Source: Watersipora subatra (Eukaryota; Bryozoa; Gymnolaemata; Cheilostomatida; Watersiporidae). Taken from it: a DNA stretch of 64,000 bases. The notes beneath the pieces were generated by a model. The model did not search any database, was not told where the DNA came from, and was given only the letters and a program-made list of their open reading frames with translations. The stretch lies in contig NC_088717.1 of the NCBI RefSeq assembly GCF_963576615.1, positions 55,569,526 through 55,633,525 on the forward strand. Reading direction: 5' to 3'. Position numbers and translations under genes: made by a program. Positions 1-58,200 of this stretch are shown one piece after another (within the stretch, counting starts at the first letter, position 1; every line of letters begins with the position of its first letter).

Positions 1-1745
1 TCTGACACTTGTTAAAGGTACGACTAGGTTCTGACACTTGTTAAAGGTACGACTAGGTTCTGACACTTGTTAAAGGTACGACTAGGTTCTGACACTTGTT
101 AAAGGTACGACTAGGTTCTGACACTTGTTAAAGGTACGACTAGGTTCTGACACTTGTTAAAGGTACGACTAGGTTCTGACACTTGTTAAAGGTACGACTA
201 GGTTCTGACACTTGTTAAGGGTACGACTAGGTTCTGACACCTGTTAAGGGTATGACTAGGTTCTGACACTTGTTAAAGGTACGACTAGGTTCTGACACTT
301 GTTAAAGGTACGACTAGGTTCTGACACTTGTTAAAGGTACGACTAGGTTCTGACACTTGTTAAAGGTACGACTAGGTTCTGACACTTGTTAAGGGTACGA
401 CTAGGTTCTGACACTTGTTAAGGGTACGACTAGGTTCTGACACTTGTTAAGGGTATGACTAGGTTCTGACACTTGTTAAGGGTACGACTAGGTTCTGACA
501 CTTGTTAAAGGTACGACTAGGTTCTGACACTTGTTAAAGGTACGACTAGGTTCTGACACTTGTTAAAGGTACGACTAGGTTCTGACACTTGTTAAGGGTA
601 CGACTAGGTTCTGACACTTGTTAAGGGTACGACTAGGTTCTGACACTTGTTAAAGGTACGACTAGGTTCTGACACTTGTTAAGGGTACGACTAGGTTCTG
701 ACACTTGTTAAGGGTACGACTAGGTTCTGACACTTGTTAAAGGTACGACTAGGTTCTGACACTTGTTAAGGGTACGACTAGGTTCTGACACTTATTAAAG
801 GTATGACTAGGTTCTGACACTTGTTAAAGGTACGACTAGGTTCTGACACTTGTTAAGGGTACGACTAGGTTCTGACACTTGTTAAAGGTACGACTAGGTT
901 CTGACACTTGTTAAGGGTATGACTAGGTTCTGACACTTGTTAAAGGTACGACTAGGTTCTGACACTTGTTAAGGGTACGACTAGGTTCTGACACTTGTTA
1001 AAGGTACGACTAGGTTCTGACACTTGTTAAGGGTACGACTAGGTTCTGACACTTGTTAAGGGTACGACTAGGTTCTGACACTTGTTAAAGGTACGACTAG
1101 GTTCTGACACTTGTTAAAGGTACGACTAGGTTCTGACACTTGTTAAGGGTACGACTAGGTTCTGACACTCGTTAAGGGTACGACTAGGTTCTGACACTTG
1201 TTAAGGGTACGACTAGGTTCTGACACTTATTAAAGGTATGACTAGGTTCTGACACTTGTTAAAGGTACGACTAGGTTCTGACACTTGTTAAGGGTACGAC
1301 TAGGTTCTGACACTTGTTAAAGGTACGACTAGGTTCTGACACTTGTTAAGGGTATGACTAGGTTCTGACACTTGTTAAAGGTACGACTAGGTTCTGACAC
1401 TTGTTAAGGGTACGACTAGGTTCTGACACTTGTTAAGGGTATGACTAGGTTCTGACACTTGTTAAAGGTACGACTAGGTTCTGACACTTGTTAAGGGTAC
1501 GACTAGGTTCTGACACTTGTTAAAGGTACGACTAGGTTCTGACACTTGTTAAGGGTATGACTAGGTCCTGACACTTGTTAAAGGTACGACTAGGTTCTGA
1601 CACTTGTTAAGGGTATGACTAGGTCCTGACACTTGTTGAGGGTACGACTAGGTTCTGACACTTGTTAAGGGTATGACTAGGTTCTGACACTTGTTGAGGG
1701 TACGACTAGGTTCTGACACTTGTTAAGGGTATGACTAGGTTCTGA
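1..1745. repeat. 29-bp minisatellite, about 60 copies, in HERC2 intron
   Basis: Head-to-tail 29-bp units (core TGACACTTGTTAAAGGTACG, then ACTAGGTTC) run from the left edge to 1745. Units differ mainly at A/G in TAAAGG/TAAGGG and C/T in TACG/TATG. A rarer CTTATTAAAGGTATG variant occurs at 791 and 1227, exactly 15 units (435 bp) apart, with the same order of variants after each, so a 15-unit block was duplicated. The array is truncated by the window edge. It begins 55 bp into the HERC2 intron that follows the exon at 1801-1934. Confidence 0.97.
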
Positions 1746-1800
1746 CAATTGGTCATTTACTTGGTCCAAGAGAGCAACTCCTAAAGACAGTGCTACATAC

Positions 1801-4800: not shown

Positions 4801-7800
4801 ACTGGTAACAACTTACATTCCAAGTAACCAACTAATAGAAATAACGTTCATGTCATAAACAAAGATACAAACATAGATACAAACATAGATACAAACATAG
4901 ATACAAACATAGATATAAACATAGATACAAACATAAAAATAAACATAGATATAAGCATATATATAAACATAGATATAAATATAGATATAAATATAGATAC
5001 AAACATAGATATAAACATAGATACATGTACAAACTGTTGTGATTTTGTACATAAAAGTACCTTAGAAGTTGCTGGACGAGATGAATTAAATCAGAGCTTG
5101 TAGATGTATCAGCAGCAGTGGAGCTCGACTCTAGTAACATATCAGGTGACTTCACTACTGCTCCTTCTCGAGACAACCTCTTGCTCTCATCAGGCTCCTT
5201 CTCATGACAATCCTAATGTGTACAAGTGTACATTATACAAGTGTACATCTTGTAAAAGTGTACAATCAAACCCATTAACTAAACAAACATACAAACCACC
5301 GAATCTATAGTCTGTTTTATGTTTATATAGTACATTACTGTCTTAATTCCTTGCATGCTTAAGAGAGGTAAACTATACAAATTATGTGATCCATGTGAAT
5401 TAGTTTTGCGTTGTTAAGAGTTGTTTGCTCAATACTGTCAAAAAAGTTTTGTATTAGTTGTATCATGTATGTAGATTTCTACATGTAACAACATCTGTTT
5501 AGCTATTCAAGTTTTGCCTTTTTTTGCATAACTATTAGCCAAATTGTGCAGAATTAATTTAATTATGTTTCAGACACAATTAAACATTACAACCATACCG
5601 AAAGTTTACAAAAAAAGGATGGAGCTGTTTACTACTAATAATGTTAATTACTACATCTTTAAGGCAAATCAAGAAATTCTATAAGAAGTTTTTGTGGAAA
5701 CCTTTCTAGCTTGCAGGTAGATATCTAGATAGTGCTAGAAGTTTAGCACTAAAATAACAGCTGACAAAGTACTTTTTATAACAGAATTATTCTAGTTAAA
5801 CAAATGGTTGACCTGCTAACCCTATATAAAAAGGGAGAAGATAATTTCAACAAAAGTATCCAGCTATAATTTTTCTATGCTTAAATTCAAATCAGTAAAG
5901 ATAAGACAACTCCAAAAGACTCAAACTTGCGTTATTATTCCAGAGAATTAGTTATTTGTACCAACTTGGGTACAAAAGACTAAATAAGAAAAAAGCAGCT
6001 ATTTGCAAATCTATAAAACAAAATGACTACTTTCCGATGCCTACCCGAGCACATTCTTTAGCAGTCTCGATGTCTATGGCCCGATCTAATGCCTCCTCCA
6101 ATCCTCCGTGTCCTATTAAACTCTTGACAAGCAAACCAATCATAAACTTCTGTCCTGATGATAGGTTTTGAACTTCTGACACAGCTAAAAGGGTTTACCT
6201 ATTTATTAGCTGAACAGGTCAGGCACTTACATGTAATTTTTGTAGACATAGACTCTATCATTCTCCAAACCTCCTAAGCCAACATCAGTTTGCGTGTCGC
6301 TTTATTTGTGCTAGAAGTACATACTGTATTCTAAAGTGCATCGCATAAAAGCTTTGCCTAGCTAAAAAAATTTTTAGACGATAATATCGACTAGTTCAGC
6401 TGTGCAAAAGATGAGTTGAGGTCAGAAGACATTGTGGAAAGTATTGAACAGTCAGAAGAATATGAAATGGTTTCAAACGGAAGCAACAAACAGAATCCGA
6501 CTGGCCGAGCAAATGATGCTAATATATTTATTTTAAAAATGTTAATTTCTGGTTCAAAATGTTAATTTTTGTTTCTGAATGTATTATAACTATGGTTTGT
6601 TTATGTCACTTGTTCTTGAATATATATTTGTAGAATTGATAGATTATTATATAATTTATAAATTTGCAGAGTTATAGCATATTAATTGATAGCATCACTG
6701 CGGTAATCTGAACTCAGCTTACAATGGATCAACGCTCGTAATTCCTGATCTATTGTATATAAAAAGCTAGTTTTGGTTGCAAACTGTAGCAAAAATACCA
6801 ATAAGTGCAATGAGTTTTTATGCAACCTTGTTAAATAAATTCTAAAATGAAAATATGCCTTCCAATTTAGAATGAAATACAATATTTGCAAGCTCCAACA
6901 AATTGCAACGCAGGTTATAAGATCATCATAAGTTAATTGCAAGCAATAGGTATCAACTGGTAGAGACATGTATCAGCTACTCCATGCATATTTATTTAGA
7001 GATCTACAACAAGTTAGAGGAAAGTTAGCGAGTTTCTTGCATACAATAGGGCTAATGTTGTACCGCCCAAAGGAGAATGCAAAATATAGGTGACATTCAA
7101 TTCGCTCGTGAAAGGGTTCAATTTATCTTCTCAATATTCTAATAAAATGTCTAAAAATTACAGTACATTGCCACCCTTTATTTGAAAGTCACCTCTAATA
7201 AAGCACCACTTTAAAGGAAGAGTTGAAAAATTTAGCACCATAGCATTCAAATAAAGGCTTTACAATATATACAATGTATATATATTGTAAAACCTTTATT
7301 TGAATGCCAATAATGTGTAATTATATTATACATACATTATATAAAAATAAATTATTAAATTAAATATATACATGTATTACATATATAGATACATTTATAA
7401 ATATATATGTATATATATATATATATATTATAAAACCTTTATTTGAATGCCAATAATATGTAAATATATATTATACATATAATATATATAAATAAATTAT
7501 AAAATTAAGTATATATATATCATGCATCTCATATTTTACACAACAATAACTTCAATACAGGTTAAAATGACTGACCAGAAGATTCCAAAGGAAGCAGTTG
7601 CGAGAGAGAACGACTCCGCTCTTCTGCAGTCGGCAGCAAATAATTCCATCCATTTTGTAACGCATTCTGCGCCGCCTTCTGAACCTACACATACATTGTC
7701 ACATCTATGATATTTTTAAGAACTAGAGTTGATATACTTCTAGTTAAGTGTCTGTTATAGATGTACTCAAAGGAGACCAGATTAGCATCCATGTGTTTGC

Positions 7801-10800
7801 GGAATAGAATACAGCATTTCTACTATAGATTAGTTATGGTTTTGGTAAACTTAGCTATTGTGACAGTGCATATTGGTGGTGATATGGCCGACAGAGTGTT
7901 TCTTGTTTGAATTATGCTTGACAGATAGTCTTACGCACTACTGATAAATTGGCCACCTGGCCGACAACAAACCTTCAAGCAACCTTTAGATAAAAATACC
8001 AATTATAATAACTCCCTCCAACAAAATTTCCAGGCCACTTACAGTTTTCAACACTCCATTGTTGGTAGCAAACGCTACTACTTTATGTTTGAGCGAGGTA
8101 GTCAGAGAACCTTCGGGAGAGAGTCCGAGTGTCGATGGATTAACATGATGATGTCGAGTGTTTAGGAGCTAGAGATTAACAATAAAGCAAATATAAGCCA
8201 TAGAGTTACTAGAGAGTGCACATTTAAACCATGTATAAATGAAGCAAATATCCAAACGGGATGTTCGCAAGAGGAACTGCCATTAGAATATATATGGAGC
8301 ACACCTGCAGGTTCAACAAGTTGAGAGTGGTAACAGCGACACACTCTCGCTCCAAAGATGGAGGCCATTCGCTCTTCATTTCCATGCCACTGCATATCTG
8401 TGTAAGCACCTCGTCTATCAGTTCAAAGGTGAGGGAGCAAAGGTCAACAATATATGGCATTCTAACAGCGAGTTCCCATTTCTTGCTGCTTGTAAACACA
8501 AATGTCTGAAAATAAATTAGTAAAATTTCAAAGGGTATACGCGAAAAATTTGATTTGAAATTGTTTGAAAAAATTCTCTCAGCGAATGAAGTATGCTAAA
8601 AGACACTTCTGAAGACAATCAAAAACTTGGAATTTATAAAAATGGAATTTAAGAATCTTCTTTCAACAAACCGTCTAAAGTCTGGTTCAAGTCAAAAGGT
8701 GAATGTGAGTTATGGGCCACTGAGAAATGATAAGGTAGATGTTTCCAGTAAAACACCTTAAAGTAATGAGACAACTACATCCACATGTTTGATACTTTAA
8801 ACTGCCTGCCAAGACCTTCTTCAATAATACTTAGACATGAAAATTGTTTCACGTTATCATCATCCTCGACTGCAAAAATTAGAGTTGGCTCAAACCTAGC
8901 GGGTAGCTCTCTTAGACATACCGCTGACCTACCTGACACGAGCCAGAAGCAGCACCCGCAACAACTCTGCTAGACAACTCATCAACAAGCTGGGGCTCTT
9001 TAATGGTTGGACAGTCGAGGGTGTCAAATGTGCCCCAAGTGTAGACCTTCAATATGGATACAATTAAAGTGATATATTAAGATATCTAGCAAAACTATTA
9101 CCCATTCATGTAAAATAGCTTCAGTTTAAACAAGTTTTGTGGGATAATCTCACCTGCCCGCCCTCTGCAACAGCCACCACATGTTTAGAACCAACACTAA
9201 TATCTGAGATTCGAGTCTTCAATGAAGAAATCCTTTTAGGAACTCTGAGATAAGCTTCCGAGCCATGCCCTAGCCTGTGGCCAGTACCATTACCCCATGT
9301 GTAGACGTGACCCTCTGGTGACAACCCGACGCTATAACACCAACAGTGAATACATAACCTAGGGCTTTTCAGTCGGGCAGAGTAGCTCGCTATAGCTCAA
9401 CAGATTCCTATGTTTTTACAGATAGACTATGATCCTTGGTGACAGATGCTGTTACAACGGTGCAGTGGGTTACCAGCCTAATCTAATACCTGAGTAGCAG
9501 CAACTACATTGACCAAGTGTTATGGCATGTGGTCCACATTCAAAATTGCAAAAATCTCAACCTGAAGGTGACCACTACCTCTAAACCAAAAATGACTGCT
9601 TGAAACCGATGAACCACAATTGTCAGCTGAAACAGTTGCAGATTTGAAACGGTTGCCGAGTCATAATACTACATGTACATAACTCATATCGCCTTTCTTA
9701 CAGCAAATGCTGAGAGAAGAATCAATGGTCTCACTAGTTTAGCATAGGCTCTTGATAGTCACTAATAATATACCATTTTAATGATTGTCAAACTTCATCC
9801 TATTTTAGATGTACAAGTAATATGATATTCTATATAACCATTCAAATTAGTATTTATGCTAGAGTAAACTAAAAGGTAATGAAATTACAAGCATTTACCT
9901 GAAACTGTCTCCATTAAGGACCTTCTTTAGACTGAGATCTTTGGTTGAACACTGTTTGAGCATGTCAGACTCACCCCAAACTAGCAACCCTGAAACATTT
10001 GTTATCAATGTTGTTAATATATTGTTAATGATACATGGTTACATTACAATGTAACAATACATTGTTCTCATGAAACTCCATATCAACTGCTTTAAAATGG
10101 TGAACAAATAAACTAAGAGTAAGATAAAACAACTAACAGTTAGTGATTATAATTAGTATAAACTAAGAGTAAGATAAGACAACTTACAGTTAGTGATTAT
10201 AACTAGTATAAACTAAGAGTAAGATAAGACAACTTACAGTTAGTGATTATAACTAGTATAAACTAAGAGTAAGATAAGACAACATACAGTTAGTGATTAT
10301 AACTAGAATAAACTAAGAGTAAGATAAGACAACTTACAGTTAGTGATTATAACTAGTATAAACCAAGAGTAAGATAAGACAACTAACCATTGGTAGTTAT
10401 TACAAGAGTAGACGAATTCTCACAGCCAAAGCTTATCTGCATAGCTCCGCTCACTCCTTGTACCAGGGTTGGTCTCACGCAATTTTCAGTGTTCCCTAAT
10501 CCTACAGCAGAGTCAGGCTATGCATTGAGCAACCACTAAAAAAAGGTATTTAGAAAAAAATTCTTCAGCGGCTTTATGCATTACGTTTGATAGCGCAATT
10601 AACATTTCACAATTGCATGCTATCCCAATGACTGCATGCACCTTAACGGAAAACAGCCTTTCTATCTCCTGGCACACAAGACACTCTAGGCAGAAAACAT
10701 GGCTTTTAAATATCTATTTAGCTAACAAACCCACATTCAACGTATAATCAGTTTGTTTTATGAACAAAGCAGAACAGCTGTACAAAAAATATAACTACAA

Positions 10801-16800: not shown

Positions 16801-19800
16801 AACAGTCTGAACAGAGCAAAATACGCCCACTAGTACAACAACAATAAGCTCTGTATTATTTCAAAGAGAACATGCTACAGGCTCCATATCATTAGCAGGA
16901 TTTTCAGTGTTACTTTGTAACCCCAAGTTTGCTAAACCATATTTAGAGACAAACATGAGTGTTTATCAGCAGTGATAAACAAGCACTTACCCAGTGATGA
17001 CAGTACGTAGGAACTTGATGCATCTGTTGACAATATCGTACCAGAGTTTGGATACTTGAGACTCATCAAATAAGCTTGCGTTTGGCAGCATCCTGCAAGG
17101 CAGCGGTAGTGAACAACATAAAATTTCTTTACTATCAAAGCTTTATAACTGAACCTCAAGTCTTGAATGTCTTGAGTTAGCGCTTAATTTGAAGTGAAGG
17201 TTGTCCAACTAAATGACTTGACAAGGCTTAATTATTAACATGGAGGCAATTTTTAAGTTGATTCCTAGCAGTCAGTGCGGAGATGCTGTAAAATTATTAG
17301 CTAAAACCTTCGATGAACAATATTTCATAGCTTGATTTTTTTACTCAGTATGTTCAAACTTTATATATGAATGACGTATCTGAAGTTTCCAATAAACAGC
17401 GTGAAATTCTAGCAAATATTTCGCTCACCCCTTGAAATAATTTTTAATATACAACATTTAAAGATTGTTTAAATCGTAGTTTCAACCGTAAAAAAAGCCT
17501 TAGATAAAAAGTGCAAGTTTCACTTTCTCTCCAAAGCTGCAATGTTTCACTTTCACTCCAAAGCTGCAATGTTTCACTTTCACTCCAAAGCTGCAATGTT
17601 TCACTTTCACTCCAAAGCTGCAATGTTTCATTTTCACTCCAAAGCTGCAATGTTTCTCTTTCACTCCAAAGCTGAAATGTTTCACTTTCACTCCAAAGTT
17701 GCAATGTTTCACTTTCACTCCAAAGCTGCAATGTTTCACTTTCACTCCAAAGCTACGATGTTTCACTTTCACTCCAACACTGCAATGTTTCATTTTCACC
17801 CCAAAGCTGCAATGATTCACTTTCACTCCAAAGCTGCAATGTTTCACTTTCACTCCAAAGCTGCAATGTTTCATTTTCACTCCAAAGCTGCAATGTTTCT
17901 CTTTCACTCCAAAGCTGAAATGTTTCACTTTCACTCCAAAGTTGCAATGTTTCACTTTCACTCCAAAGCTGCAATGTTTCCCTTTCACTCCAAAGCTGCA
18001 ATGTTTCACTTTTACTCCAAAACCGTAATGTTTCATGAAATTTGACCATAGCATGCAGCAAAAGGAAGTTACTTCAACGTATCAGCAAATATTTGCTCAA
18101 ATTCTACATGCTGGAAAATTCACGTGCCGAGGTGACCATAAGTAGCGGTTTCACCGAGGAAGTTATGGCATATGAAGCTGACATGACGACTCATCTCTCA
18201 CCTCATAGCCTCAGTAGTCTCCTGTAAGAGGTCACAGCAGAGGTCAGTGTCCTCACCAGACCTCCAGGTTCTCCTCAGAAAGGCAAAAGCAAAGCTGAGG
18301 GCAGTCCTAGAGCAGACGTTGGCCAAACCCTGTTTCATGGCCTCTTCCGGGGACTGTTGACTAAAATCACCATATTTTATCATCTATAAACTGAAACTAA
18401 AATAGTTTGCATCAATGTCTACCTAGTTACTCTATCTGTAACGATTTACGAACATCTAGAGATCAAGTAAATGTCTTTTCACCTGTTAACTTGAGAGAAA
18501 TTCTCGAAATGGAAAGAAAATCTGCAAAAGAAGACTCTCTATTGGGTAAAAATATCCCACAAAAATGGTCTCTGCTGGTAGACAAAGATGAAATAAAATT
18601 TATTAACTAGAATGAAACGCATAGAATGCGCATTTATAGAGTTAGATGATGGTCTATATATAGACAAGCTTTTCTATCCATGTACATGAGTAACGGTCTT
18701 TTTTTAACCAAGGCATACTTATTGTCTCCAACTGGCATGTGAGTCATATTTTGGTCTATAATATGAGTATTTCTATGGATAATAAAGAGTGATAAAAGTA
18801 ATTGTTTACAAGTGATTAATTGGCACTCTTACATTGTATATGAAATATGATAAACATGGTACGAACTTCATTAGGCATGTTGAGTCTCAATTATACAGTC
18901 TCAAAGGAATTTATCTGAGGCACATCTTGGTGGCTGTATAATAGTTTCATATACATTCTATGACGCCGGACATCAACAACAGGCCACCCTTTCCACTGCA
19001 CAAACCATGCCTCTGACAGCAGATTCTGGTTGCTGTTAGTTTGAACTGGAGCTAACTTATTAATGTTCACATAAAGACAGCAACTGACAGAATTATAATG
19101 CTAAACCCATGACTGGAATAATACAAGCTGATGAGGAAACCAAACCCAACTGCCTGCAACAGAGTAAATGTAAAGCAATACTCACGCCATCTGTGTCACA
19201 AGATTGGCCGCAGTCACGTTGCTCTTATGCTTACGAGTGAAACGCTCACCCCCGACCCGGTGTGACTGTCTAGCTAAGGCTAAGAGATATCGCTCCAGTA
19301 TGATCAACCTCTGTATCAAAGTGGAAGTGGATGGCGTGCTGCGGGCTGCTTCATTGCTCACTTTCTTGTTTTCCTCCACAAGTGAGTCAATTCCTTTATG
19401 CAACTCCTCTAGACCTGAACATAAAGAGTCATCTAATTAAGGTTCAGACTTACGTTTGCTCCTGGTGACATTGGTCTGTCAATAAGCCTTGACATAATCT
19501 TAGCTAGAGGATCATTTTAAAAGTTTAAAAAACTTAAATGTTCAAGATTTGGTGCGTTGGTGAATTTTATCACATTAAGAAATGAAAAATCAATATAATA
19601 ATAAAGTATATCAAATTTATATACTGATAGAAAATAACAAATCAATACACTGATAGGAAATAACAAATCTATATACTGATAGGAAATAACAAATCAATAC
19701 ACTGATAGGAAAGAAAAAGTCAATACACTGATAGGAAATAACAAAACAATACACTGATAGGAAATAACAAATCAATACACTGATAGGAAATAACAAATCA

Positions 19801-21729
19801 ATACACTGATAAAAAATAACAAACAATACACTGATAGGAAATAACAAACAGTACACCGATCAGAAATAATAAATCTATATACTGATAAAAAATAAATCAA
19901 TACACTGATAGGAAATAACAAACAGTACACCGATCAGAAATAATAAATCTATATACTGATAAAAAATAAATCAATACACTGATAGGAAATAACAAACAGT
20001 ACACCGATCAGAAATAATAAATCTATATACTGATAAAAAATAAATCAATACACTGATAGGAAATAACAAACAGTACACCGATCAGAAATAATAAATCTAT
20101 ATACTGATAAAAAATAAATCAATACACTGATAGGAAATAACAAACAGTACACCGATCAAAAATAATAAATCTATATACTGATAAAAAATAACAAATCAAT
20201 ACACTGATAGGAAAGAAAAAATCAATACACTGATAGGAAATAACAAAACAATACACTGATAGGAAATAACAAATCAATACACTGATAGGAAATAACAAAT
20301 CAATACACTGATAAAAAATAACAAACAATACACTGATAGGAAATAACAAACAGTACACCGATCAGAAATAATAAATCTATATACTGATAAAAAATAAATC
20401 AATACACTGATAGGAAATAACAAATCAATACACTGATAGGAAATAACAAATCAATACACTGATAAAAAATAACAAACAATACACTGATAGGAAATAACAA
20501 ACAGTACACCGATCAGAAATAATAAATCAATATACTGATAAAAAACACTGACCAACATTTCTTTTCCAGGTCCAGGAGTTAAGGATATGTTGAGAGGAGT
20601 GGCCATGGTTCTCTCCACAGCGTCCCGTAGCCTTTTCTTCGCCATCTAGCTGCGCACAAGCTGTACAATTACAGCCATTTGCCTGACAAACACCGTTACA
20701 GCACCGGCAGGATAAGGTCCTGAGGCCACAATAGTATTTTCCATTCTCTCCTAACAATGAGAGTAAGAAGTATAGCGACATCTGGTTACGATGACCGGTA
20801 TATGGTGAGCAGTTGCATCATGGGAAGGCTAATGATATTCGCTGAATAGTAAATAGTAGGCCTAATGGATACTTTGTCAAGATGCATTAACTGCAAAAAC
20901 CTGAAGTACGTCGTAAAAGTGTTTAACAGTCGAATTAATCAATGATCCTATAATTAAAAATGGTCAATAATACAGAAACATACATGTTGGTGAACATAAG
21001 TTAACTAGCGTTAACTAGTTAACAGCTAGTGTTAAGTTAATTATGTTTAACTAGCTAAACATCTCCAACAATACAAACAATAATAAAACCATTCATGTAT
21101 CCTACCTTTTTTAGAAATATTCCCTGAACTATTAACAACACCATCATTGGAGGGGGCACAGAGTTCATTGGTCTGAACTAAGTCATTCCACATAAAGCTC
21201 AAACTGACAGGATTGAATATATCCTGCAAAAATATAGCCTAAGGTACAAGATTGCAAAAAGAAAATAGCTAAGAGCGAACAAAGACATATATACAACAAA
21301 ACACACTGGTTTTGAGAGCAAAGGATAAGAGCACCGATATCATAAAAGTGACCTAAAATATCCTTTTAAAATTATTTACAAAAATCATCTTGATTCGCTA
21401 AAAACTAAAGCAAACTTCCTGAGTGTTACGAGAAGTCACACTGTGTAGATTATCAAAGAATCTTTTAGGGCTACCACTTCTTCAAATGTTGTTAACTTAT
21501 GCTATCTCTATACTCTGGAGGAGAGTATATACAAGAAAACCATGATGTTCTGGTGTCGTCATTTCAGCTTACCAAAAACTCAATCAAGCAATAGTGAGCC
21601 GTTTATTCAAAACTTACTTGCAAGTTAACTTTGAGCCATTTACTGTCCAGTCTAGCCTGCCGTCTAAGCTTTAGATCAGTAATAGCTCCAAGTGCTTCCA
21701 TAGTAGTTTTTGCTCCACCATTTAGTTGT
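1801..21729 (-). CDS. HERC2: HERC2 giant HECT E3 ubiquitin ligase, N-terminal part (25 exons, continues past left edge)
   Basis: Exons, 5' to 3' on the minus strand: 21618-21729, 21106-21223, 20553-20645, 19186-19414, 18202-18360, 16991-17092, 15696-15912, 13603-13698, 12738-12884, 12137-12313, 11626-11789, 10932-11071, 10388-10501, 9899-9989, 9154-9331, 8933-9046, 8305-8505, 8043-8168, 7576-7678, 6045-6175, 5061-5212, 4429-4616, 2997-3137, 2345-2530, 1801-1934. All junctions are GT-AG and phases agree, giving 1,195 codons from the ATG at 21701. That ATG lies 14 residues before [10 protein letters not shown], as in human HERC2, which supports this start. Other HERC2 signatures are [90 protein letters not shown] and [12 protein letters not shown]. 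Domains: helical N-terminus (1-415), divergent first RCC1-like domain (about 416-741), helical linker, start of the cytochrome-b5-like domain (1151 onward). The family is a nuclear/cytosolic DNA-damage and centrosome ubiquitin ligase; the HECT domain lies outside the window. Confidence 0.96.
3649..4404. mobile_element. Non-autonomous pogo/Tigger-like (Tc1/mariner) element
   Basis: The right end, read on the minus strand, is TACAGTCATACCTCGACGTA, with TA at 4405-4406. The left end at about 3649 is a decayed version (CCACACACCTCAACATACAA). Inner sequence repeats the same phrase (CCCGACATACGAG at 3672). No transposase is left. It sits in a HERC2 intron with its right end 24 bp from the donor of the exon at 4429-4616. 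Confidence 0.7.
4860..5037. repeat. 12-bp imperfect tandem repeat (AAACATAGATAC)
   Basis: Alternating ACATAGATAC / ATATAGATATAA blocks with a 12-bp period and decayed members. It starts 23 bp into the HERC2 intron that follows the exon at 5061-5212. Open frames here (YIYVCIY..., LYLCLYL...) come from the repeat. Confidence 0.9.
6176..7157. other. HERC2 intron, no feature seen
   Basis: AT-rich intronic sequence between the HERC2 exons at 6045-6175 and 7576-7678. I see no coding exon, repeat array or clear element in this part; the MITE copies begin after 7158. Confidence 0.6.
7158..7460. mobile_element. Decayed copies of a GTAAAACC MITE family with AT-rich expansion
   Basis: The stretch holds outward and inward copies of a phrase like GTAAAACCTTTATTTGAATG (7289 and 7430 region) and its reverse GCATTCAAATAAAGGCTTTA (7244 region), around an (AT)n tract. 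The arms at 7244-7263 and 7288-7307 can pair as a hairpin. Related copies lie at 42,930-43,100 and 57,824-57,920. No coding capacity. Confidence 0.6.
10111..10387. repeat. 50-bp tandem repeat flush with HERC2 exon 13 donor
   Basis: Units start at 10111, 10161, 10211, 10261, 10311 and 10361 (AACTAAGAGTAAGATAAGAC...), exact period 50. The last partial unit ends at the donor of the exon at 10388-10501. Read on the minus strand, each full unit contains a donor-like CTGTAAGTTGTC, a better match to GTRAGT than the real GTTAGT. Confidence 0.95.
11900..12040. repeat. AT-rich palindrome cluster in HERC2 intron
   Basis: Overlapping inverted phrases such as TTTCTAACAATACTATTGTT/AGAAAAT around 11974-12000 and repeated ATACTATATTATTAGTATTG. 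It can fold into hairpins. No coding content. Confidence 0.6.
13926..13985. mobile_element. Fragment of interspersed repeat shared with 55,976-56,040
   Basis: CCGTGAGAGATCATCATGAG followed by TAGTCAGTGCGTGCATAATTA matches, with few differences, the segment at about 55,998-56,036, which is followed by a tRNA-like unit. It lies in the HERC2 intron 13699-15695. The rest of that 2-kb intron is AT-rich with nothing I recognise. Confidence 0.55.
15955..16100. repeat. AATATTGAATATT microsatellite/palindrome in HERC2 intron
   Basis: Interleaved TTCAATATTTAATA and its complement form a low-complexity, self-complementary tract that begins about 45 bp upstream of the acceptor of the exon at 15696-15912. 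Confidence 0.85.
17515..18035. repeat. 27-bp minisatellite with higher-order duplication
   Basis: About 19 units of AATGTTTCACTTTCACTCCA+AAGCTGC, period 27. Because 27 is nine codons, several frames stay open on both strands (MFHFHSKAA..., QLWSESETL...); these are not genes. The same run of variants occurs at 17629 and 17872, 243 bp (nine units) apart, showing a nine-unit block duplication. It lies in the HERC2 intron between the exons at 18202 and 17092. Confidence 0.95.
19610..20546. repeat. 26-bp / 74-bp higher-order satellite reaching the HERC2 exon 3 donor
   Basis: Basic unit CAATACACTGATAGGAAATA+ACAAAT. From about 19,849 a 74-bp higher-order unit (CAGTACACCGATCAGAAATA...) recurs at 19849, 19923, 19997, 20071 and 20145. 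The block at 19,617-19,856 is nearly repeated at 20,119-20,358. The array ends a few bases from the donor of the exon at 20553-20645; the intron's own first bases (GTCAGTGTTTTTTATCAGTA) already resemble the unit (TATCAGTGTATTG). Confidence 0.93.
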
Positions 21730-37440: not shown

Positions 37441-37473
37441 CCACATGTAGGATACAGCAGTGTGTGTAAGGTA

Positions 37474-38573: not shown

Positions 38574-39453
38574 CTCAACATAGGGGTAAAATCCTACTGT
38601 CCCACTCTGTTTGAAATAATCTTCTGTCTCAAATCTCATCATGTAAGTACCAGCTGTGAACTCTGATGCCGTGAGAAGTCCTGGCAGACGTCCATCAGAG
38701 TTAGTTCGCCTGGCAAATTGGATACTTACTAGTAAAGTAGTGTCTTTATTTAATCTAGTCTAGTGAGACATTGACAACATTGATATATCACTATTATCAG
38801 GCTTTATATTACATACCCTTCTTTTAATAATGTTGCCTTCGTTCCTTCTAGCCTATGCAGTTTTATAAGAAGGTTACTGGCAGGTTTGCCTGTAGATGTA
38901 TTCAAGACATGAGTGGTCATCGGGCTAGAGATGGCGGCCGCCATAGCTGTTGTCGTCTGTAAGAAAGCGTATTCCGATTGCTAGCTTTAGGGAAGCATAG
39001 TCCTAGGGCCATATTGCTTTTAAATGTCATTTTTTCTGTGTTGGTTATTGTAAGCAAAGTTTGGTTCAAAAGCCATAGCAAGACTAGTTCGCTATAGTTC
39101 AAGACTATATTCATTACTAGTAGTAAACCCGGCAATGCCCCAAATCTCTTTCATTTCTATCAGACGGCGGGTGTTTTAAAGCTGGTTCTCAGAAACCAAA
39201 CAGAGTTTTGCAACCAAATATTTTAGTGACCTGGTGGAAGGCACATGGGTGAAGTTTGTACAAAGTCAGCACAAGATGTAGAAGTGGTTAAGTTGACTAA
39301 CAGACACGACCACAATGTTTGAAGTGACACAAGTGAGATTTATTCGTATAAAAGCTACAGATCGAAAAGGGGCATCTAACTTACAGCGCTTTGAGATGCA
39401 ACAACTTGAAGACGCTCCCTTGCTTTTGTAACAGTAGATTTCACTGCACTCAT
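38574..39453 (-). CDS. URAH: 5-hydroxyisourate hydrolase (transthyretin family), last exon not found
   Basis: Three minus-strand exons: 39385-39453, 38817-38956, 38574-38709, phases 0/2/0, giving 115 residues. They read MSAVKSTVTKARERLQVVAS, then SSPMTTHVLNTSTGKPASNL, then TNSDGRLPGLLTASEFTAGT and ending GFYPYVE. This matches 5-hydroxyisourate hydrolase rather than plasma transthyretin. The family catalyses the second step of urate breakdown, often in peroxisomes. The THVLN histidine and SDGR arginine of the active site are present. RLQVVASQS near the N-terminus resembles a type 2 peroxisomal signal but has Ser at its last position. The final exon should code VVFTI...HVPLLLSP...YRGS. I could not find it between 38,573 and PPP1R7. 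A weak candidate with VVFTIN lies at about 36,184-36,262 but lacks the HVP and YRGS motifs. The gene may be broken, or its last exon diverged. An acceptor-like CAG precedes the ATG, so a 5' UTR exon is possible. Confidence 0.88.
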
Positions 39454-40609: not shown

Positions 40610-40648
40610 AATATACTTATTGGCTTTACAAGTCAATAAGTATATTGT
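40610..40648. repeat. Perfect 14-bp inverted repeat
   Basis: CAATATACTTATTG, an 11-base spacer (GCTTTACAAGT), then CAATAAGTATATTG. It is a strong small hairpin in intergenic DNA with no assigned role. Confidence 0.7.
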
Positions 40649-44200: not shown

Positions 44201-44650
44201 CGATCAACCCCTCTAGAGATTGGATAGTCAATCTAGCCAATCAGCAAGATATTAGCAGCCGTGAGAATGACAAGTGCAAGTACCCAGCTGAGCTTTACAA
44301 TACACGTCATTGTGCTAAAAACACTCCAGAGGTAAAACCAAGTCAACAAGTACACATCTGGGATCAGAAGGCCACAGGAGTAGTCTTATGACAGGTAGCT
44401 CTTCATTCCTAAAATATAACTAAAGAAGCAGACAACACAATGCATCAAAACAAATCAGCCGTCATCTTAATGACAGTCCCTATGGATAATCAGATGATCA
44501 CACCAGCAAGACTACAGTGTAGACTAGTAGATACACCTAAAAGTGGCAGAACATTCAGCCTCCGAACATTAACAATAGGCTGCGGCATGATCGAAATCCA
44601 CCACCATGTCTTGTGAAAAACTACCAAACATCCCTTTGATAATGACATGC
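41300..44650 (+). mobile_element. Fossil Ty3/Gypsy-type LTR retroelement (decayed)
   Basis: The usual order of a Ty3/Gypsy element can be read along the plus strand: gag-like segment with a CCHC zinc knuckle (about 41,390-41,860), protease-like region (about 41,940-42,370), the beginning of a reverse transcriptase (about 43,100-43,330), and an integrase with its zinc-binding and core parts (about 43,600-44,400). Much of the reverse transcriptase/RNase H part is absent and no clear long terminal repeats are seen, so the limits are approximate. A copy of the GTAAAACC MITE family sits inside at 42,930-43,100. The element is broken in many places (of the order of ten or more) and is an old fossil. 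Confidence 0.8.
42930..43100. mobile_element. GTAAAACC-family MITE inserted in the Gypsy fossil
   Basis: Read on the minus strand it begins TACCGTAAAACCTGTATTGG and continues with repeated TATTTGAA(C/G)GCCA phrases, then AGAGTTGAAAAATAGAATGA. The same family is at 7,158-7,460 and 57,824-57,920. A TA beside the end fits Tc1/mariner-type insertion, but the other end is not sharply defined. Confidence 0.6.
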
Positions 44651-45365: not shown

Positions 45366-45450
45366 TGTTTGGGATAATCTGACTGCTGGCATGTTTCAAG
45401 ATTTAAGTTGACAAAACTTGATGGCAGTTAAAACGTTTGATAGATCCTAA
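45366..45450. repeat. Solo copy of interspersed TTTCAAGATT repeat
   Basis: GATAATCTGACTGCTGGCATGTTTCAAGATTTAAGTTGACAAAACTTGATGGCAGTT matches in parts (each under 20 bases identical) the arms of the element at 60,596-61,950. It is a family member in intergenic DNA. Confidence 0.6.
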
Positions 45451-49231: not shown

Positions 49232-52200
49232 ATGACTCAAGTCGAGGTGACCGGAACTATCACCAAATTCCATAACTGCAGACTGTTAAAGAATCACTCG
49301 ATATACTGGGAAGATATATGGGTAAGTTAATGCAATAACTTCATTCCCAATATTTCATTGATTTCATCAAGATGGTAGTAAATGAGTCTACTAATGTAGG
49401 CATTTGGTAACCAACTAACAAATACTTTCATGTAATATAGGATGCTAAATACACCAAGTTTGTTCAAAGTTGCTTTAAAATAACAATTTATAGTGTTTAT
49501 TGTATCGTGTGTATTTCACTTGTGTACGTCCTGTGATTGCACTATAACTGTTGCTTGATTTGGTTTGTAGTAAGTTGCTGTTGTTTCAGGTCAGAGATGG
49601 CATAATTATTGATCCTCAGAAGTGCTTCTATGGAGAAAGACGTGATCCAGACATTAAAGTGAATTGTGGAGGCAACATAATTGCACCAGGTTATATTGAG
49701 ACACAGATCAATGGTGAGTTACAGTCTGTGAGTAGTCATCACCTCACTAGTCAGTGGCTGTCAGCTCACTAGTCAACAGTTGTCAGCTCACTAGTCAGTA
49801 GTTGTCAGCTCACTAGTCAGTAGTTGTCAGCTCACTAGTCAGTAGTTGTCTATTATAGTAGTTTTGAAATAAAATATTATTTTATTTCAAACAAAAGTAT
49901 TTTCAAAATTATGTTATAGATGAGTCGTAAAAAAGGGCAACAATTAGTAGAATCAAATGTTTGGGATGTCATTTAAATTACGTTTTTCTGTTAAGAAAAC
50001 GGATATTAGGTTCTGTCTTATTATAGTGGTAGTATAAACTCTATTTACAGAGGTCAATGCCATTTACAGCAAATCAGACCATGAGGCAAAAGTAACAACA
50101 AAAGATAGTAAAGTAAATTATGTATATTGAAAGAAAAAGCTCTTTTCACATAACGCCGTTCTATAATGTAAATTGGCAAGGTGTTGGTGTTTGGTACAAG
50201 GTGTGGTGGTTTTTTGGGAAGCAGGAAAGTCATTATTCTTCCTTAAAGTATTATTTATTAAACTGATTCATTAGTGGTTATGAATGGCATGAATTGTACA
50301 TTTTGTTTAATCACTTGCAATGCGTGCAACATTCTACCTGGCTTTTCAGAGGTTTTTTTACAGTAAACACATTTCAGAATACATATAAAATGACTATGCC
50401 CAGTGTGAATGCCAACTTTGTAGTTATCATGTCAGCTGAAAAGTGAGTGAATATTTACAGGTGCATTTGGTGTAGATTTCTCAAATCACTCCTTAGACAT
50501 GCAGGTAGAGATAAAGAAGGTAGCAGAAGGTCTGATGGCACATGGGGTTACTTCTTTCTGCCCAACTGTTATAACGTCACCCAGTGATGTCTACAGAAAG
50601 GTCAGTGGTAAATTCATTATTATGCCTCTCACAGGACCACAAGATGTTTATATGAATATATTTGTATTCCCACAACCAAAAACGAGCGGAGCGATTGTTT
50701 GGGAGATTTATGATAAATGCATGTGCACACAACTCACGAAAATTATTCATCAACGCAGTCGCAAACCCTTATACCGAAATCTCATCAGCAAATTTAACCA
50801 TTTTTCAATGGAGCCGTTTAAGTATAATAATGATACAAAACACATATAAACCTATTTAAATATGTTACCAAGTCTTTATTATTTGTAGATAATATCCTAA
50901 ACCTTACCCATCTGATCGGATGATACACAAATAGACAGATTAATTTGGCCTAAATTCACAATAAAAAAACTTGACAAGCCTTATTTTTAACAAAATTAGG
51001 AGCGGCCAACGATACGCCAATAAAGCCGTGCGACAGATAGTAGAACTATTAAGCAAGGCGCAGTTCACGAGAAAAACGTGCTCATTTCACCTGTCTATAG
51101 CATTGTCTAATTGCCGAAGGTTTCTAATATTTTTCCAATGTAGGTTTTTAATATCTTGCAAAAATATTTAATTATTAGAATAATTGTTCGATTTTATAAA
51201 ATTATTATAAGATGTAATTATAAGAATAATTATTCGAATTTATTTACCCCAATTTTTCTGTAATATACATAGACCGTTTGAGGCGTAGACCGATTTACAG
51301 GTACGAAATTGTGGTACACAGCTTATCAGCCTATGTTTTTTTCTAATTACCGAAAGTTTCATTAAATTATTTAAAATGTCAGCCAAAATTCGTTACATCT
51401 TATGTACAAGCTAGGGCCGAACTACAATGCCCCTTTACAACGAGAACTTTTTTTATTTTGCTCCAGTTTGCAGAAAACTTCCAGGCGTGTAAACGCTCAT
51501 ATTTGCTTTCTGTTAAAGATCGCTATCAAAACCATTCTACATTCAACACAACCAACTTTCAAACTGTGTATATTACACAGCAGCTTGCCATTTTACTTCC
51601 AATACTGCATTTCAGAGATATAATAAACATATTTCCTTATTACTGTTGTTAAATTACATACATTACAGTAGGTTAGGCCTACAGCTTTAATTAATATTCA
51701 TTTTATTGTTGTAAAACATAGGCTTGAGATAGTAGTAGATTAGGTGCGATTTTTTTACAACCTTTTGTTTCGCATAATTGACTTTTTGAATTTAATTTCA
51801 AAACAACTTGACAACTACCATGGGCATACAACTTCCTTAAACACCACGTCGTGGTTGACGCAGTGGCCGTCCACGTGTCTCTCAATTATTACAGCTCAAT
51901 AGGAGGATAAATAGAAGGTCCTCACAGCAACTATCAACATCAACTGCTAATGTTCAACAACACACTTCTCAAATTAATAACAACACGACTCATTTGATTC
52001 AGAGAATTCTTTAGTAGATGTTGTAGGTGATGTAAATGACATGGACTTGGCAGCCCTTTGTTTCGAGATGATGATCATGATTTTATGGACATCATTGACC
52101 ATGAAAATATTGCACAAAACAATATTGCTCCTCCCAATGCTGCCCCCTCCCCCCCCTTCATCACATTCCTCATTTTCAATCTTTAGATTGTCCTGATTTT

Positions 52201-55200
52201 CAAGAACTGCGTAACAACTTTCTAGGTAGACTTGACAACAACATATCACAGCTCACATGTACTGGATGTAATGAGAAACATTTACACTATACTCTGTCAA
52301 TTCCTGCTGACAACTACTTTTTCAACAACCCGCACTACCATTTCTTTTTTCCATTATCACTTATTCCATTATCAGGTCGTGGGCTGTATGACAGGAATAT
52401 TTCTAGTTTATAAAATGTAGTTATTATTTTTCTTTCACATTTAAAATTGTATTGAAAGACTCTACTATGAAACGTAATAGCTTAGTTTCACCATATTCTA
52501 GATTCTTCCGACCATCAGCCGGTGCAATGGAAGCAGGGAGGGGGCTGGAGTGCTAGGGCTTCATTTAGAAGGGCCATTCATAAGTAAAGCAAAGAAAGGT
52601 GCTCATCCAGAAGAGTGCATAGCCTCAGATCTAACTGGAGGACTAACTACAGTGGACGAAATGTACGGCTCACATATGATTGATAGGACCTCGATAGTAA
52701 CGATTGCACCGGAGCTACCCGGCGCTTTGGAGGTCATTTCTGCTTTAAGCAAAGATAGGGGCATACGAGTCTCTATAGGTTTGTAGCTATCATCTTCAAA
52801 ATCGACATTCAACTTGAATATATAATTATATTCAAGATGAATGCCGATCGTGAAGAATGTATAAAACAAAAAATTATATTTTTCATATTACCAGTTTTGA
52901 AACGACTGTAGTAGTTGGGCAGATGAAAGGCCGTTTTGTTTATCTTTTGTAAAAACAAAAGATTGTGGGACTATTCCTTGTATTAGTCAAGCAATACCAT
53001 TTTTACTACTTTTTTCAGTACTTATTCGTAGGAATGAGGAAATCATCCGCTCTATTCATCAGTTTTTGCATATTTTTCGTATCTAATTTCAGACACAAAA
53101 TGATATTCATATGAACTGATGGTATATTAACAACTTGGTTACACAGTGAAGAAGTTCTATCTACATGCTAATGCCTTTCAGGTCACTCAGAGGGTACGAT
53201 CAAGGATGGTGAGAGAGCTGTGAGGGCTGGCGCTACATTCATAACTCACCTATTCAATGCTATGCTTCCAGTAGGTGTCTCTCAGCGAATCATGTTAGTT
53301 TGTACTATTCATTTCTATGCTAGCGGTAGCTGCCTCTCAACCAATAATGTTCGTTTTTGCCATTCAATGCAGTGCTACCGGTAGGTTTCCCTCAACCAAT
53401 CACATAGGTTTTAAATGGTTTGAACGCTTTTGTTTAGCGCAAATGCATCAAAGTCACGGCTCGGGGGCTACATCTGGCCCACCTTGTAATCAGTTCTGGC
53501 CCGCAAGATCATTTTATACTATTGTTATTCGTGGCCGATCGATATAGAGCACTGATTACATAATACTGCACAGAACTACTGATCTCATAATGCAATGCTT
53601 CAACTGCCTTGCTGCGTACTTCTCGAGTCAATCTAACCTGAAGTTTGTTTTAGAATGATATTCCTGTCGGTTTTTATCTATACTTATGTTACAGAAACAT
53701 TTTAATGTTTTAATGTGTTGAATAAATGTTTATCCTGTTCGGCCCGCGACCTCGATTGTGTTTTGAATTTTGGCCCCTTGTACAATTGAGCTTGACATCT
53801 CTGGCTTAGCGTAATACAGTCAAACATGGATAACTCGCCCACGGATAGCTCGAACACATGGCTAACTCGAACGGTTTCTTTGGTCCGTTCCCACGTAATG
53901 ATAAATTGCTATAGATAACTCGAACTCAACACTGTTAACTCGAACTGTTTTTTGCCCAACGGCTACCGAAACGGTTGTTATCGCTTTAGAAAGTCACTTT
54001 ATTCCAAGCCATAAAGGTAAACCTCCATTAAGGCAAACCATATTCCATAAAGGTAAACCTCAACTTTTCGTAATTCATAAGCGTCGTTATTACCACCATC
54101 GGCAAAATATTTTTGTCAATGACTTTTCTAAAGGTTTGGTGAAATTTGATTTATACCAAACATCCGCTTAGCGATCGCCCTTCGGAAGCAAGGTAAAGTG
54201 AGGTAATCTCTGCATAAACTTCAAGAAAAATCGGCAAAATTGATCGTGGGTAAAACGTTCAAAAGAAAAAGATGTCTTTTCTTTTGAGCATTTCAACAAC
54301 GATCAAGTTTTGCCAATGTCAATCTAAAAACGTCCTGGCAATAACATAACCTCAAACAACAAACCAATCTCAAGTGATGGAAAAATCTCTATACTTTTTG
54401 ATAAAAACGTTTTAAACTTTACATTAGAAGCATTTAATTTGAAACAAGCCATTTGTGCTTTTGATTTATATTATAGTTTGTATATGTACATGTATCTACT
54501 AATAAATAAGTAAATACATGGACTTGTGACAGTGCTCTGATAACTTGAACGCTCTGATAATTCGAACACTTTCGCTCGGTCCCGTGAAGTTTGAGTTATC
54601 CATGTTTGACTGTACTCAACTGTTACAGTGGGACTCGTCCACTCTTGACTCATCAATCATTGATTTTGATCAATAAGTCAGTAATCAAAATTTGTTCTGA
54701 TTATTTTGATGGAATCAAATTACATGTAATCAAAATCTCTTTTGATTATTTTAAAATAGTCAACATTTTGATATTCAAAATATTAAAAATTACTTTGATT
54801 ATTGAAAAAAATAATCAGTCTATCAATTTTCCCTCAAACAGCGCCTGTCCTTGGCAAACATTTCTCTTCATGTTAGCTGTTGCAAATTACTTTGACTTGT
54901 TTGCTTTTGTGGCACGACATGTTTATGCTGCTATTAATAAAAATGAACATCTCGTCTGCTGCAGTTTCACCATAGAGATCCTGGTCTAGTTGGATTGCTC
55001 ACTAGCTGGAAGCTGCCTAAAGACTCTATGGTGTACTATGGAATAATTGCTGACGGTATTCACACACATCCCGCTACAATGCGTATAGCCCATAGGACCC
55101 ACCCCAATGGTAAGCCTTAGCCCATAGGACCCACCCCAATGGTAAGCCTGACTAGCGAACTGCTTGTACCCTCCATTTTTATCAGCTGCACGGCAGAATC

Positions 55201-58200
55201 AGCCATGATGTCATACGCTGTAGTGATTGTTGATGTCTTTCACGGGTACATTTTTTTGTAACAGTTTGTATAGTGCATACACCATCTTGTCAGCATCTAA
55301 TGAAGATTTGACATATTATTTTGTAGGGTTACGGTTAATATTATGTGGCCATATTTGTACACAATGTATGTAATTTGGCTGACCAGTCTGAAGGGTAATG
55401 TTGTTTCCAGTGTAATGCTGATACGGATATGGATTTGTTTTTGTAACAGAAAACATTTGAAACTTCCCTATCATTGTGACTATAAACTGAAAGTTGTCAT
55501 GTCTAATATTTTGCGATTGTGTAAGCTTCATATCTACATACGGGTAGATATATACTAACCGGTAGATATATACTAACCGGTAGATATATACTAACCGGTA
55601 GATATATACTAACCGGTAGATATATACTAACCGGTAGATATATATACTAACCGGTAGATATATACTAACCGGTAGATATATACTAACCGGTAGATATATA
55701 CTAACCAGTAGATATATACTAACCGGTAGATATATGCTAACCGGTAGATATATGCTAACCGGTAGATATATACTAACCGGTCGATATATACTAACCGGTC
55801 GATATATACTAACCGGTAGATATATACTAACCGGTAGATATATACTAACCGGTAGATATATACTAACCGGTAGATATATACTAACCGGTAGATATATACT
55901 AACCGGTAGATATATACTAACCGGTAGATATATACTAACCGGTAGATATATACTAACCGGTAGATATATACTAGGACACTTGCCAGTCTCGTGTACTGTG
56001 AGAGATCGTCATGAGTAATCAGCAGATGCATAATTATTCAGTGAAGCGGTAAGGCGGCCGAGTGATGCAGTGGTAGCGCTTGCTTTTGAATCTGACTCCC
56101 GGGTTCGATTCCCATGCGGGACACTCTTTTTTCTAACACTCTTAGCATGGCTTTGGACAGACAGACATTGTTCATATTATAGTAATTATTCTCAAGTGTG
56201 ATATTTACACTTCGTGTGTGTATTTCTGTCTTTACTAACTGTTATACAGGGATAGTTCTGGTGAGTGACTCGATGTGTGCAGCAGGTCTTAGCCCGGGCA
56301 CTTACCACTTTGGTCAACAGACTATAGATGTAAAAGAAAAGAAGGCATATGTTGCTGGAACTGAGACACTTGCAGGCAGGTTGGAAAACTTAGCTGTTTA
56401 AATGGTAGTGACTGCCAGTATTTCTATATCTTGCGTGTATGTCTGTGTTATATCTCATTGCTAGCCAGACTGGAATTGGACAAAATAGATGCTTTAAATG
56501 TGGAAATAATGCTATCTTTTAATTTGAAAATTGAGGTATTGTTTATTAATTCCTCACATAAACAGATCTTAGCCCAACTGCGAAATTATATTGTGTCTTA
56601 TAGTAACACCTCAATCAAATGCTTGGGCTTCTGCATGCCGACTATGGGATAGAAGTTAGATAAACTTGTGCCTTAAAATTCAACTTTATAAGATGATTTT
56701 GAGATGAAATTTCAATTATAAAATATAATAACTCTTCATAAAATTACTGTCAACTTTTAACACGCTGCTTGTGTATAGTCGGTGTTGGCCAATAGGACTC
56801 AACTAGGATCAGCCAATGCTAATAAAGAAGTGATACGTTCAACATAACAATAAATATGGCCAAGACAAAACAAGACTGATACAATAATATAAATATGTGA
56901 ATACGAATATATGCAAAATGTGTAATTGCTGAAAAGCAAGCGTGTTCCACCATTGGCTAATTCACTGTGACAACTCAGCACACATCGATTGCTGAAGTTA
57001 TCAGCACATATCGATTGCTGAAGTTATCACAATCACAGCTGAGCGATTCACGATTTGCTGTGTCGAGTTTGTATTTAACTGATGTGAGAGAGAAATGTGT
57101 GGCTTACTAAGTCACTTGCTGTATATGAGCCTAGAGTGACTCCTCTTAGGTTGTCTAATGTGTTAGTTTAGTAATAGGAACCTATGTAGGAAATTCATAG
57201 TTCCTGAGAACCAGCTATGTGTAGAACAGAAGCAGCATGATAAGACATGTTTTTGCAAGAATTTGTTTCAGGCATATTTACTAATTAGTTTACAAATTTA
57301 TTTCCCATTGTAACAATTGGATTATTTGCGGTATAGGGAAGAACTATGGTCAAACTGTGGTTTGCTGCGTTTTAGCATAGCATTCCTTGATGAGTGTGTC
57401 CAGACATTTTACAACGGGACAGAGTGCAGCAAGGTAGAAGCTTTAGAAGCTGCAACACTACATCCTGCATTACTTCTCGGTTGGTAGATACATTTTTATT
57501 AATATCTGTCGTGCTGCCGTAAAGTGACTAACTTCTTTTCAACACTAATGGTCAGCTACTTTATTTCATTTTCAAATTAGCACATTATAAATTTGAAATA
57601 TTTTGTATGCCAAATGTAAATGATTTCGCATGAATAATTAGAGGTTGCCAGCTTTTACACAACAAAATAATACTCAACATACCAAGGTAACAACATATAC
57701 AAGTTTTTAGCAAGTCCTGTTGGATAGAGAATCTAAACTGGAAAACTGTACGCCAAATAAAATTTGTACAACATACAGCTTTTGGTAGATTGTGTTATTG
57801 AAAAACAGTATAAATTATATGCCTAAAATCTATTTGAACGCCACCATATGGAAAAGGGTGAAAAATTCACCGCTACTCTTTAATTGAACACCACCTCTAT
57901 TAGGCCGCCACTTTGACATTTCTTATGTTTGATCTTTATGAACCCATAATAAAAAGTTATCGATAGAAAATTATCCACAAAATGGTACTAATAATGACTC
58001 AGTTATATCAAAAACAATTCTTTCATTGTTGCTGTAGTGATTGCCATGAATTTAGTGACGCTGCGATTGAAAAGTTCAATCATCACAATCGTCAGAACTA
58101 TACTCTGATTTGAAATCGCTACGGTCTAAATCCTATCCATTGTCTGCAGATTCATTTGTAAGATGGTTTGCATTCTTATCTGAAGACTTTCAAATGGGTT

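What the first reader, a model, noticed from the sequence alone, without database searches (positions are those of the whole stretch)
1..56249. Tandem repeats repeatedly start at or contain splice donors
Of roughly a dozen arrays, seven lie within about 60 bp of a 5' splice site: HERC2 exons 3 (20553), 13 (10388), 21 (5061) and 25 (1801), and AMDHD2 exons 2 (49713), 5 (53270) and 6 (55109). An eighth touches an acceptor (PPP1R7 exon 3, 31588). In four cases the repeat unit carries the donor or a close copy of it. About 45 introns with 60 bp each make only about 4% of the window, so chance placement looks unlikely. Donor-seeded repeat growth would create decoy donors and could drive intron length and splicing change. 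I know of no described process that predicts this bias.
Basis: partly seen in the sequence, partly recalled or inferred. Interest (0 to 1): 0.75.

Follow-up and report, generated by a model that had tools for sequence, protein, structure and literature searches.

The report
Minisatellites beside intron start sites
Short repeated DNA blocks really do sit at several intron starts in this animal's genes, but a small independent sample gives only weak support for a general preference, and repeats spanning such boundaries are already known from amphioxus and human genes.

Summary
All eight arrays exist at the stated places, in AMDHD2, HERC2 and an LRR gene consistent with PPP1R7. With a fair null the excess survives inside the genes: 7 near donors against 2.0 expected, P=0.001; 5 against 1.8, P=0.024, without two unconfirmed exons. 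The test is post hoc. An independent sample (119 exons, same genome) shows donors 4 against 1.7 (P=0.09) and acceptors 2 against 1.8 at score 80; P ranges from 0.046 to 0.42 with the score cut-off. Donor junctions lie in a tandem duplication as often as random intron points (6/160 against 21/475); acceptors less often (2/159), not significantly. The donor itself is repeated clearly in AMDHD2 exons 5 and 6, decayed in HERC2 exon 13. Donor words are over-represented in arrays genome-wide, but two AGGT-bearing control words are raised too, and AGGT is about strand-even in gene-region arrays. Boundary-spanning minisatellites are known as amphioxus "mirages". Verdict: real repeats of a known kind; a general donor bias is possible but not established.

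The parts
55086..55149 (+). 32-bp unit x 2.0, 100% identical; the copies hold the last 24 bp of AMDHD2 exon 6 plus the donor GTAAGC
   Evidence: TRF; donor and decoy both score 10.3; the exon 6/7 join aligns to human AMDHD2 7nut without gap
53250..53400 (+). 55-bp unit x 2.7, 76%; copies hold about 20 bp of AMDHD2 exon 5 end plus the donor; exon ends at 53270 (CCA|GTAGGT, weak, score 1.0)
   Evidence: TRF; self-alignment score 21; the exon 5/6 join aligns to 7nut; copies at +55 and +110 score 3.2 and 5.3
10108..10384 (-). 50-bp unit x 5.5, starts 3 bp into the intron after HERC2 exon 13; units hold a decayed copy of the exon end and a weaker decoy ACT|GTAAGT
   Evidence: TRF; self-alignment score 18; donor 8.3 against decoys 5.3
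19608..20540 (-). 26-bp unit x 36.8, 12 bp into the intron after the predicted HERC2 exon 3 (20553); no donor copy found
   Evidence: TRF; exon by model only; no decoy of score 4 or more within 320 bp
49731..49850 (+). 22-bp unit x 5.5, 17 bp into the intron after AMDHD2 exon 2 (49713); one weak decoy (5.0) lies before the array
   Evidence: TRF; exon supported by 7nut
4857..5025 (-). 12-bp unit x 14.1, 35 bp into the intron after the predicted HERC2 exon 21 (5061)
   Evidence: TRF; exon by model only, low score
1..1751 (-). 29-bp unit x 60.4, 49 bp into the intron after HERC2 exon 25 (1801); reaches the window edge
   Evidence: TRF; exon supported by 2keo
31344..31569 (+). 15-bp unit x 15.1, ends 18 bp before the acceptor of PPP1R7 exon 3; the frame is open from array into exon
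   Evidence: TRF; ORF 31337-31795
17508..18035 (-). 27-bp unit x 19.6 in a HERC2 intron, 166 bp from the donor: an array not near a splice site
55543..55973 (+). 18-bp unit x 23.8 in an AMDHD2 intron, 433 bp from the donor: an array not near a splice site

Best explanation
These are ordinary minisatellites of a minisatellite-rich animal genome with short introns (median about 0.7 kb among 40 listed window introns, one of them with a stand-in length). Most arose by tandem duplication inside introns. A few duplications happened to span an exon-intron boundary; these are of the kind called 'mirages' in amphioxus. When the duplication copies the exon end with its donor, the first copy still sits in place. 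If the spliceosome uses it, the message is unchanged and the extra copies fall into the intron, so such events survive and the intron grows. The acceptor side may tolerate this less. The crowding at donors in this window is largely a cluster noticed after the fact, perhaps on top of a modest real excess near donors. Shown: the arrays, the boundary-spanning copies, the intact reading across the AMDHD2 joins, and stops or frameshifts if later copies were used. Inferred: use of the first donor, neutrality, and origin by slippage or unequal recombination.
For: Junction test: 6/160 donors, 2/159 acceptors, 21/475 interior points; in the window 3/43 against 11/129. Independent exons after dropping 3 predicted exons that lie in arrays: score 50, donors 4 against 3.33 (P=0.42), acceptors 3 against 3.33; score 80, donors 4 against 1.70 (P=0.09), acceptors 2 against 1.78; within 20 bp, donors 1 against about 1. 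The window differs from that sample: 7/43 against 4/119 donors, P=0.008. 71 units: sense donor score of 8 or more in 3 against 1.8 expected, antisense 2 against 1.6. AMDHD2 exon 6 read-through gives GKP then stop, and HERC2 exon 13 stops after one residue; exon 5 stays open for 37 codons, but its copies at +55 and +110 would shift the frame. The joins align to human AMDHD2.
Against: The window excess is strong against chance (P=0.001 inside the genes) and donor-sided at score 100 (7 against 1). In the independent sample the excess is donor-sided too once artefacts are removed, nominally significant at score 100 (4 against 1.49, P=0.046); the raw run gave donors 5 against 1.99 (P=0.045) and acceptors 4 against 1.94 (P=0.11) at score 80. 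Donor consensus words are over-represented in tandem pairs genome-wide. In gene-region units GTAAGT is 2 sense to 0 antisense and GTRAG 6 to 3. A blind motif search hit an array that starts at the end of a predicted exon (L075). The acceptor shortage is not significant (P=0.08 against interior, 0.28 against donors).
Confidence: 0.57

Rival explanations
1. Donor-seeded growth: the 5' splice-site region is a preferred birthplace of tandem repeats in this genome, because of a mutational hotspot or because spare donors are favoured at weak donors.
For: Window: 7 against 2.0, P=0.001. Independent donors 4 against 1.49 at score 100, P=0.046, acceptors 2 against 1.56. Blind hit L075: the array begins 11 bp inside a predicted exon and carries its donor, with stronger copies (11.1-11.3 against 7.6). 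Kinase exon in L018: array starts exactly at GTGAGT. AMDHD2 exon 5: authentic donor 1.0, copies 3.2 and 5.3. Donor words in tandem pairs: AGGTAAGT 5557 and AGGTGAGT 2819 against 1670, 2433, 1294 for dinucleotide-matched words; hand-counted C1 loci 12 in 9.2 word-Mb against 25 in 90.2, P=8e-5.
Against: Donor junctions are not duplicated more than interior points; the independent result fades at score 50 (P=0.42) and within 20 bp (1 against about 1); units carry no excess of donor motifs; AGGT is twofold enriched in units while GTAAG is not (5 against 4.7), and AGGT is about strand-even in gene-region units (11 sense, 15 antisense); of three flanks that could be judged, L077 shows no exon at the array start and L074 only a weak 47-bp prediction (score 6.9); the L075 exon has no Pfam match.
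Confidence: 0.3
2. Splicing filter (a possible part of the best explanation): boundary-spanning duplications arise everywhere, but survive at donors and are purged at acceptors, giving a donor-sided pattern without any mutational preference.
For: Donors 6/160 near the interior rate of 21/475, acceptors 2/159; stops or frameshifts if a later donor is used.
Against: The acceptor shortage is not significant (P=0.08); arrays near acceptors are at the expected number, not below it (2 against 1.78).
Confidence: 0.4
3. The repeats are functional: arrays of donors regulate splicing or give alternative isoforms.
For: Equal-strength second donor at AMDHD2 exon 6; stronger copies at exon 5; human cases are in print (passages; title).
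Against: Use of the second donor at exon 6 would run into a stop and the exon 5 copies shift the frame; no RNA data here.
Confidence: 0.06

Closest known systems
[quoted passage not shown] Adh3, globin genes), PMC3087553, abstract and passages seen
   Same: Tandem units span an exon-intron boundary, many carry splice signals; both boundaries can be affected there; unit lengths of 10-72 and 150-160 bp there, 32-55 bp here
   Different: Here only 2 clear and 1 decayed of 8 window arrays span the boundary; splicing and length polymorphism untested; organism not identified
[quoted passage not shown] title seen in a reference list; paper not held)
   Same: Minisatellite with repeated donors
   Different: Use of the repeated donors is unknown here; that the transcript is G1P3 and other details are recalled
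Internal tandem repeats at exon-intron boundaries of human paralogs, PMC2812944 (passages)
   Same: Minisatellite expansion at exon-intron boundaries
   Different: The human study reports novel introns and alternative transcripts; here existing introns seem merely lengthened
Intron gain by tandem duplication of AGGT segments (Rogers model), PMC4974935 (passages)
   Same: Duplication carrying AG/GT signals leaves the message intact
   Different: No new intron is shown here

Membership tests
Amphioxus-type mirage | tandem units span an exon-intron boundary | tested here: met
   AMDHD2 exons 5 and 6 clearly, HERC2 exon 13 decayed; HERC2 exons 25, 21, 3 and AMDHD2 exon 2 do not
Amphioxus-type mirage | repeat units carry splice signals | tested here: met
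   AMDHD2 exon 6 decoy 10.3; HERC2 exon 13 decoys 5.3; exon 5 copies 3.2 and 5.3
Amphioxus-type mirage | normal splicing undisturbed | not testable with these tools
   needs RNA; the reading across the joins fits
Amphioxus-type mirage | copy number varies between alleles | not testable with these tools
   one assembly only
Minisatellite with multiple used donors (G1P3 type) | several repeated donors are used | not testable with these tools
   no transcripts
Intron gain by AGGT duplication | a new intron in formerly exonic sequence | not tested
   no intron-position comparison with other species was made
General donor-seeded repeat bias | excess at donors over acceptors and over interior intron positions in independent genes | tested here: inconclusive
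   donors 4 against 1.5-3.3 by cut-off (P 0.046-0.42), acceptors at expectation; no excess over interior points

The most novel reading that the evidence does not exclude
In this genome tandem repeats are born preferentially at 5' splice sites, above all at weak donors; later copies can be stronger donors than the authentic one (L075: 11.1 against 7.6; AMDHD2 exon 5: 5.3 against 1.0), making arrays that lengthen introns and could reshape splicing across many genes.
Probability: 0.26. Interest if true: 0.6.

Novelty: new member of a known kind. Interest (0 to 1): 0.3.

Why it matters
If donors were true seeds of tandem repeats, intron length growth and new splice choices would have a simple mutational source that can be tested on any annotated genome. 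As it stands, the case adds examples of boundary-spanning minisatellites in an unnamed animal, and shows how a mis-set null and one rich window can suggest more than a broader sample yet supports.

Tried and rejected
Not accepted as proof of donor seeding: the 12-fold excess of AGGTAAGT pairs over the reversed word. The two AGGT-bearing dinucleotide-matched words are also raised, listings show single huge arrays giving many pairs, AGGT is enriched in 85 units while GTAAG is not, and AGGT is about strand-even. The listings are capped, so loci were counted only in the listed part of C1.

Mended on re-check: (1) In the raw independent run predicted exons lying inside arrays made one donor hit and two acceptor hits; one search drops 3 such exons and is the figure to use. 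(2) My scripts up to one search put the AMDHD2 exon 5 end at 53271; 53270 is right, so the exon 5 donor score and read-through are void and come. (3) The Fisher test used 118 donors typed by hand; one search repeats it with 119.

Other: I judged flanks at the first exact motif copy; TRF showed the arrays begin earlier, and (with a lower exon penalty) turned L075 into a positive. L076 lay wholly inside its array and was not used. Two HERC2 exons (3 and 21) were dropped in a sensitivity run. The same filter left 162 exons (43 window, 119 others). The exon model merged the PPP1R7 array with exon 3; I used 31588. The full HERC2 and AMDHD2 joins contain stops from wrong exon edges and were not used. 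Interior controls are up to three per exon, not independent, and may touch neighbouring exons.

Full report
Setting. The window lies on contig C10 of an unnamed 784-Mb assembly; that it is an animal is inferred from the genes.

Observation. TRF finds all eight arrays. The donors read as described. An exon model built from 74 Pfam exon hits of the same genome predicts exons ending at six of the seven donors and puts 53270 23 bases too far; protein alignment across the joins fixes 49713, 53270 and 55109. HERC2 exons 3 and 21 have no protein support here.

How unusual. Placing arrays at random off exons gives 1.23 near donors against 7 seen, acceptors 1 against 1.23; at score 50 donors are 8 against 2.53 and acceptors 4 against 2.53. 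Inside the four genes: 1.99 against 7, P=0.001, and 1.83 against 5, P=0.024, without the two unconfirmed exons. Inside the same intron: 1.93 against 6 of 12, P=0.004. So the window is unusual, but it was picked because it looked so.

Independent test. From 45 merged segments (about 187 kb) around kinase and CCT exons I took 122 exons, 87 of them overlapping a Pfam hit. Raw result at score 80: donors 5 against 1.99 (P=0.045), acceptors 4 against 1.94 (P=0.11). Some of these are predicted exons lying inside arrays; without 3 such exons (119 left) donors are 4 against 1.70 (P=0.09) and acceptors 2 against 1.78 (P=0.53). At score 100: 4 against 1.49 (P=0.046) and 2 against 1.56. At score 50: 4 against 3.33 (P=0.42) and 3 against 3.33. 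Within 20 bp: donors 1 against about 1, acceptors 0 against about 1, except at score 50 where about 1.9 each are expected. More sequence could not be had.

Does the repeat contain the donor? I aligned each junction with its own downstream (donor) or upstream (acceptor) 205 bp. Scores of 14 or more: 6 of 160 donors, 2 of 159 acceptors, 21 of 475 interior points. The six are AMDHD2 exons 6 and 5, HERC2 exon 13, kinase exons in L018 and L036, and a weak CCT case. Donor junctions thus behave like any intron position, while acceptors may be spared (P=0.08 against interior). Among 71 gene-region units (22 window, 49 elsewhere; not all proven intronic) donor motifs are not in excess.

Genome-wide word test. 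Pairs of a word 15-45 bases apart, both strands: AGGTAAGT 5557 and AGGTGAGT 2819; matched controls AAGTAGGT 1670, AGTAAGGT 2433, AGTGGAGT 1294; the same words reversed, in this order, 459, 641, 538, 427 and 2428. Hand-counted distinct loci in the listed part of C1: 12 in 9.2 word-Mb against 25 in 90.2, P=8e-5; in the same first 4.24 Mb, 11 for two donor words against 4 for three controls, P=0.009. Single-word counts in 322 kb are 12 and 8 against 12, 10 and 7. So donor-like words are commoner in arrays. But in 85 units AGGT is twofold enriched (29 against 14.9) while GTAAG is not (5 against 4.7), and AGGT is about as common antisense (15) as sense (11) in 72 gene-region units; the longer GTAAGT and GTRAG lean sense on tiny counts (2 to 0, 6 to 3). 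Of four donor-word arrays fetched, three could be judged: L075 starts 11 bp inside a well-predicted exon end (score 20.5) and repeats its donor, though that exon has no Pfam match; L074 has only a weak 47-bp prediction at the array start; L077 has none. This signal remains partly unexplained.

Mechanism. At AMDHD2 exon 6 a perfect duplication of 32 bp copied exon end and donor. The human protein aligns across the join as if the first donor were used, and read-through gives GKP and a stop. Exon 5 is an older, decayed case: its authentic donor is weak (1.0), the copies score 3.2 and 5.3, read-through stays open for 37 codons, and either copy would shift the frame. The simplest reading is a neutral duplication absorbed by the intron. 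Which donor is used is inferred, not shown.

Known kind. [quoted passage not shown] Human paralogs show tandem repeats at exon-intron boundaries (PMC2812944, passages). Intron gain by AGGT duplication is a standing model (PMC4974935, passages). A human minisatellite with multiple donors was reported in 1995 (title only). I saw no genome-wide test for donor bias in my listings (titles and abstract starts), which is a narrow search.

Verdict. Real repeats of a known kind. The window's donor excess is real as a count and weakly echoed elsewhere; donor seeding as a general process is possible but unproven.

Noticed in passing
31337-31795 (+): The 15-bp array before PPP1R7 exon 3 is open in frame with the exon (repeats of DVASR), so an upstream acceptor could add a peptide repeat to the protein.
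   Followed up: no
38574-38956 (-): HIUase/transthyretin-family exons (PF00576, E=9e-21) lie near a 66-bp x 8.1 array of 98% matches at 37480-38011.
   Followed up: partly
41332-44391 (+): Broken open frames that look retroelement-like (resemblance recalled, not searched).
   Followed up: no
L042, L043, L045-L051, L053, L054, L057 (C3, about 22.6-30.7 Mb): Twelve fetched Cpn60/TCP1-like loci with long single frames (391-519 codons) clustered on C3, unlike the many-exon CCT genes.
   Followed up: no
C1:3480598-3483800 (partly L076): A 28-bp minisatellite of about 110 copies, the listed ones each with the donor consensus CAG|GTAAGT.
   Followed up: partly
L075 (C1:1754350-1755350, minus strand): Array starting at the end of a predicted exon, with units that are stronger donors (11.1) than the apparent authentic one (7.6).
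   Followed up: partly
array units in window and loci: AGGT is about twofold enriched in tandem-repeat units (29 against 14.9) while its reverse TGGA is not (12 against 14.7); about strand-even; cause unknown.
   Followed up: partly
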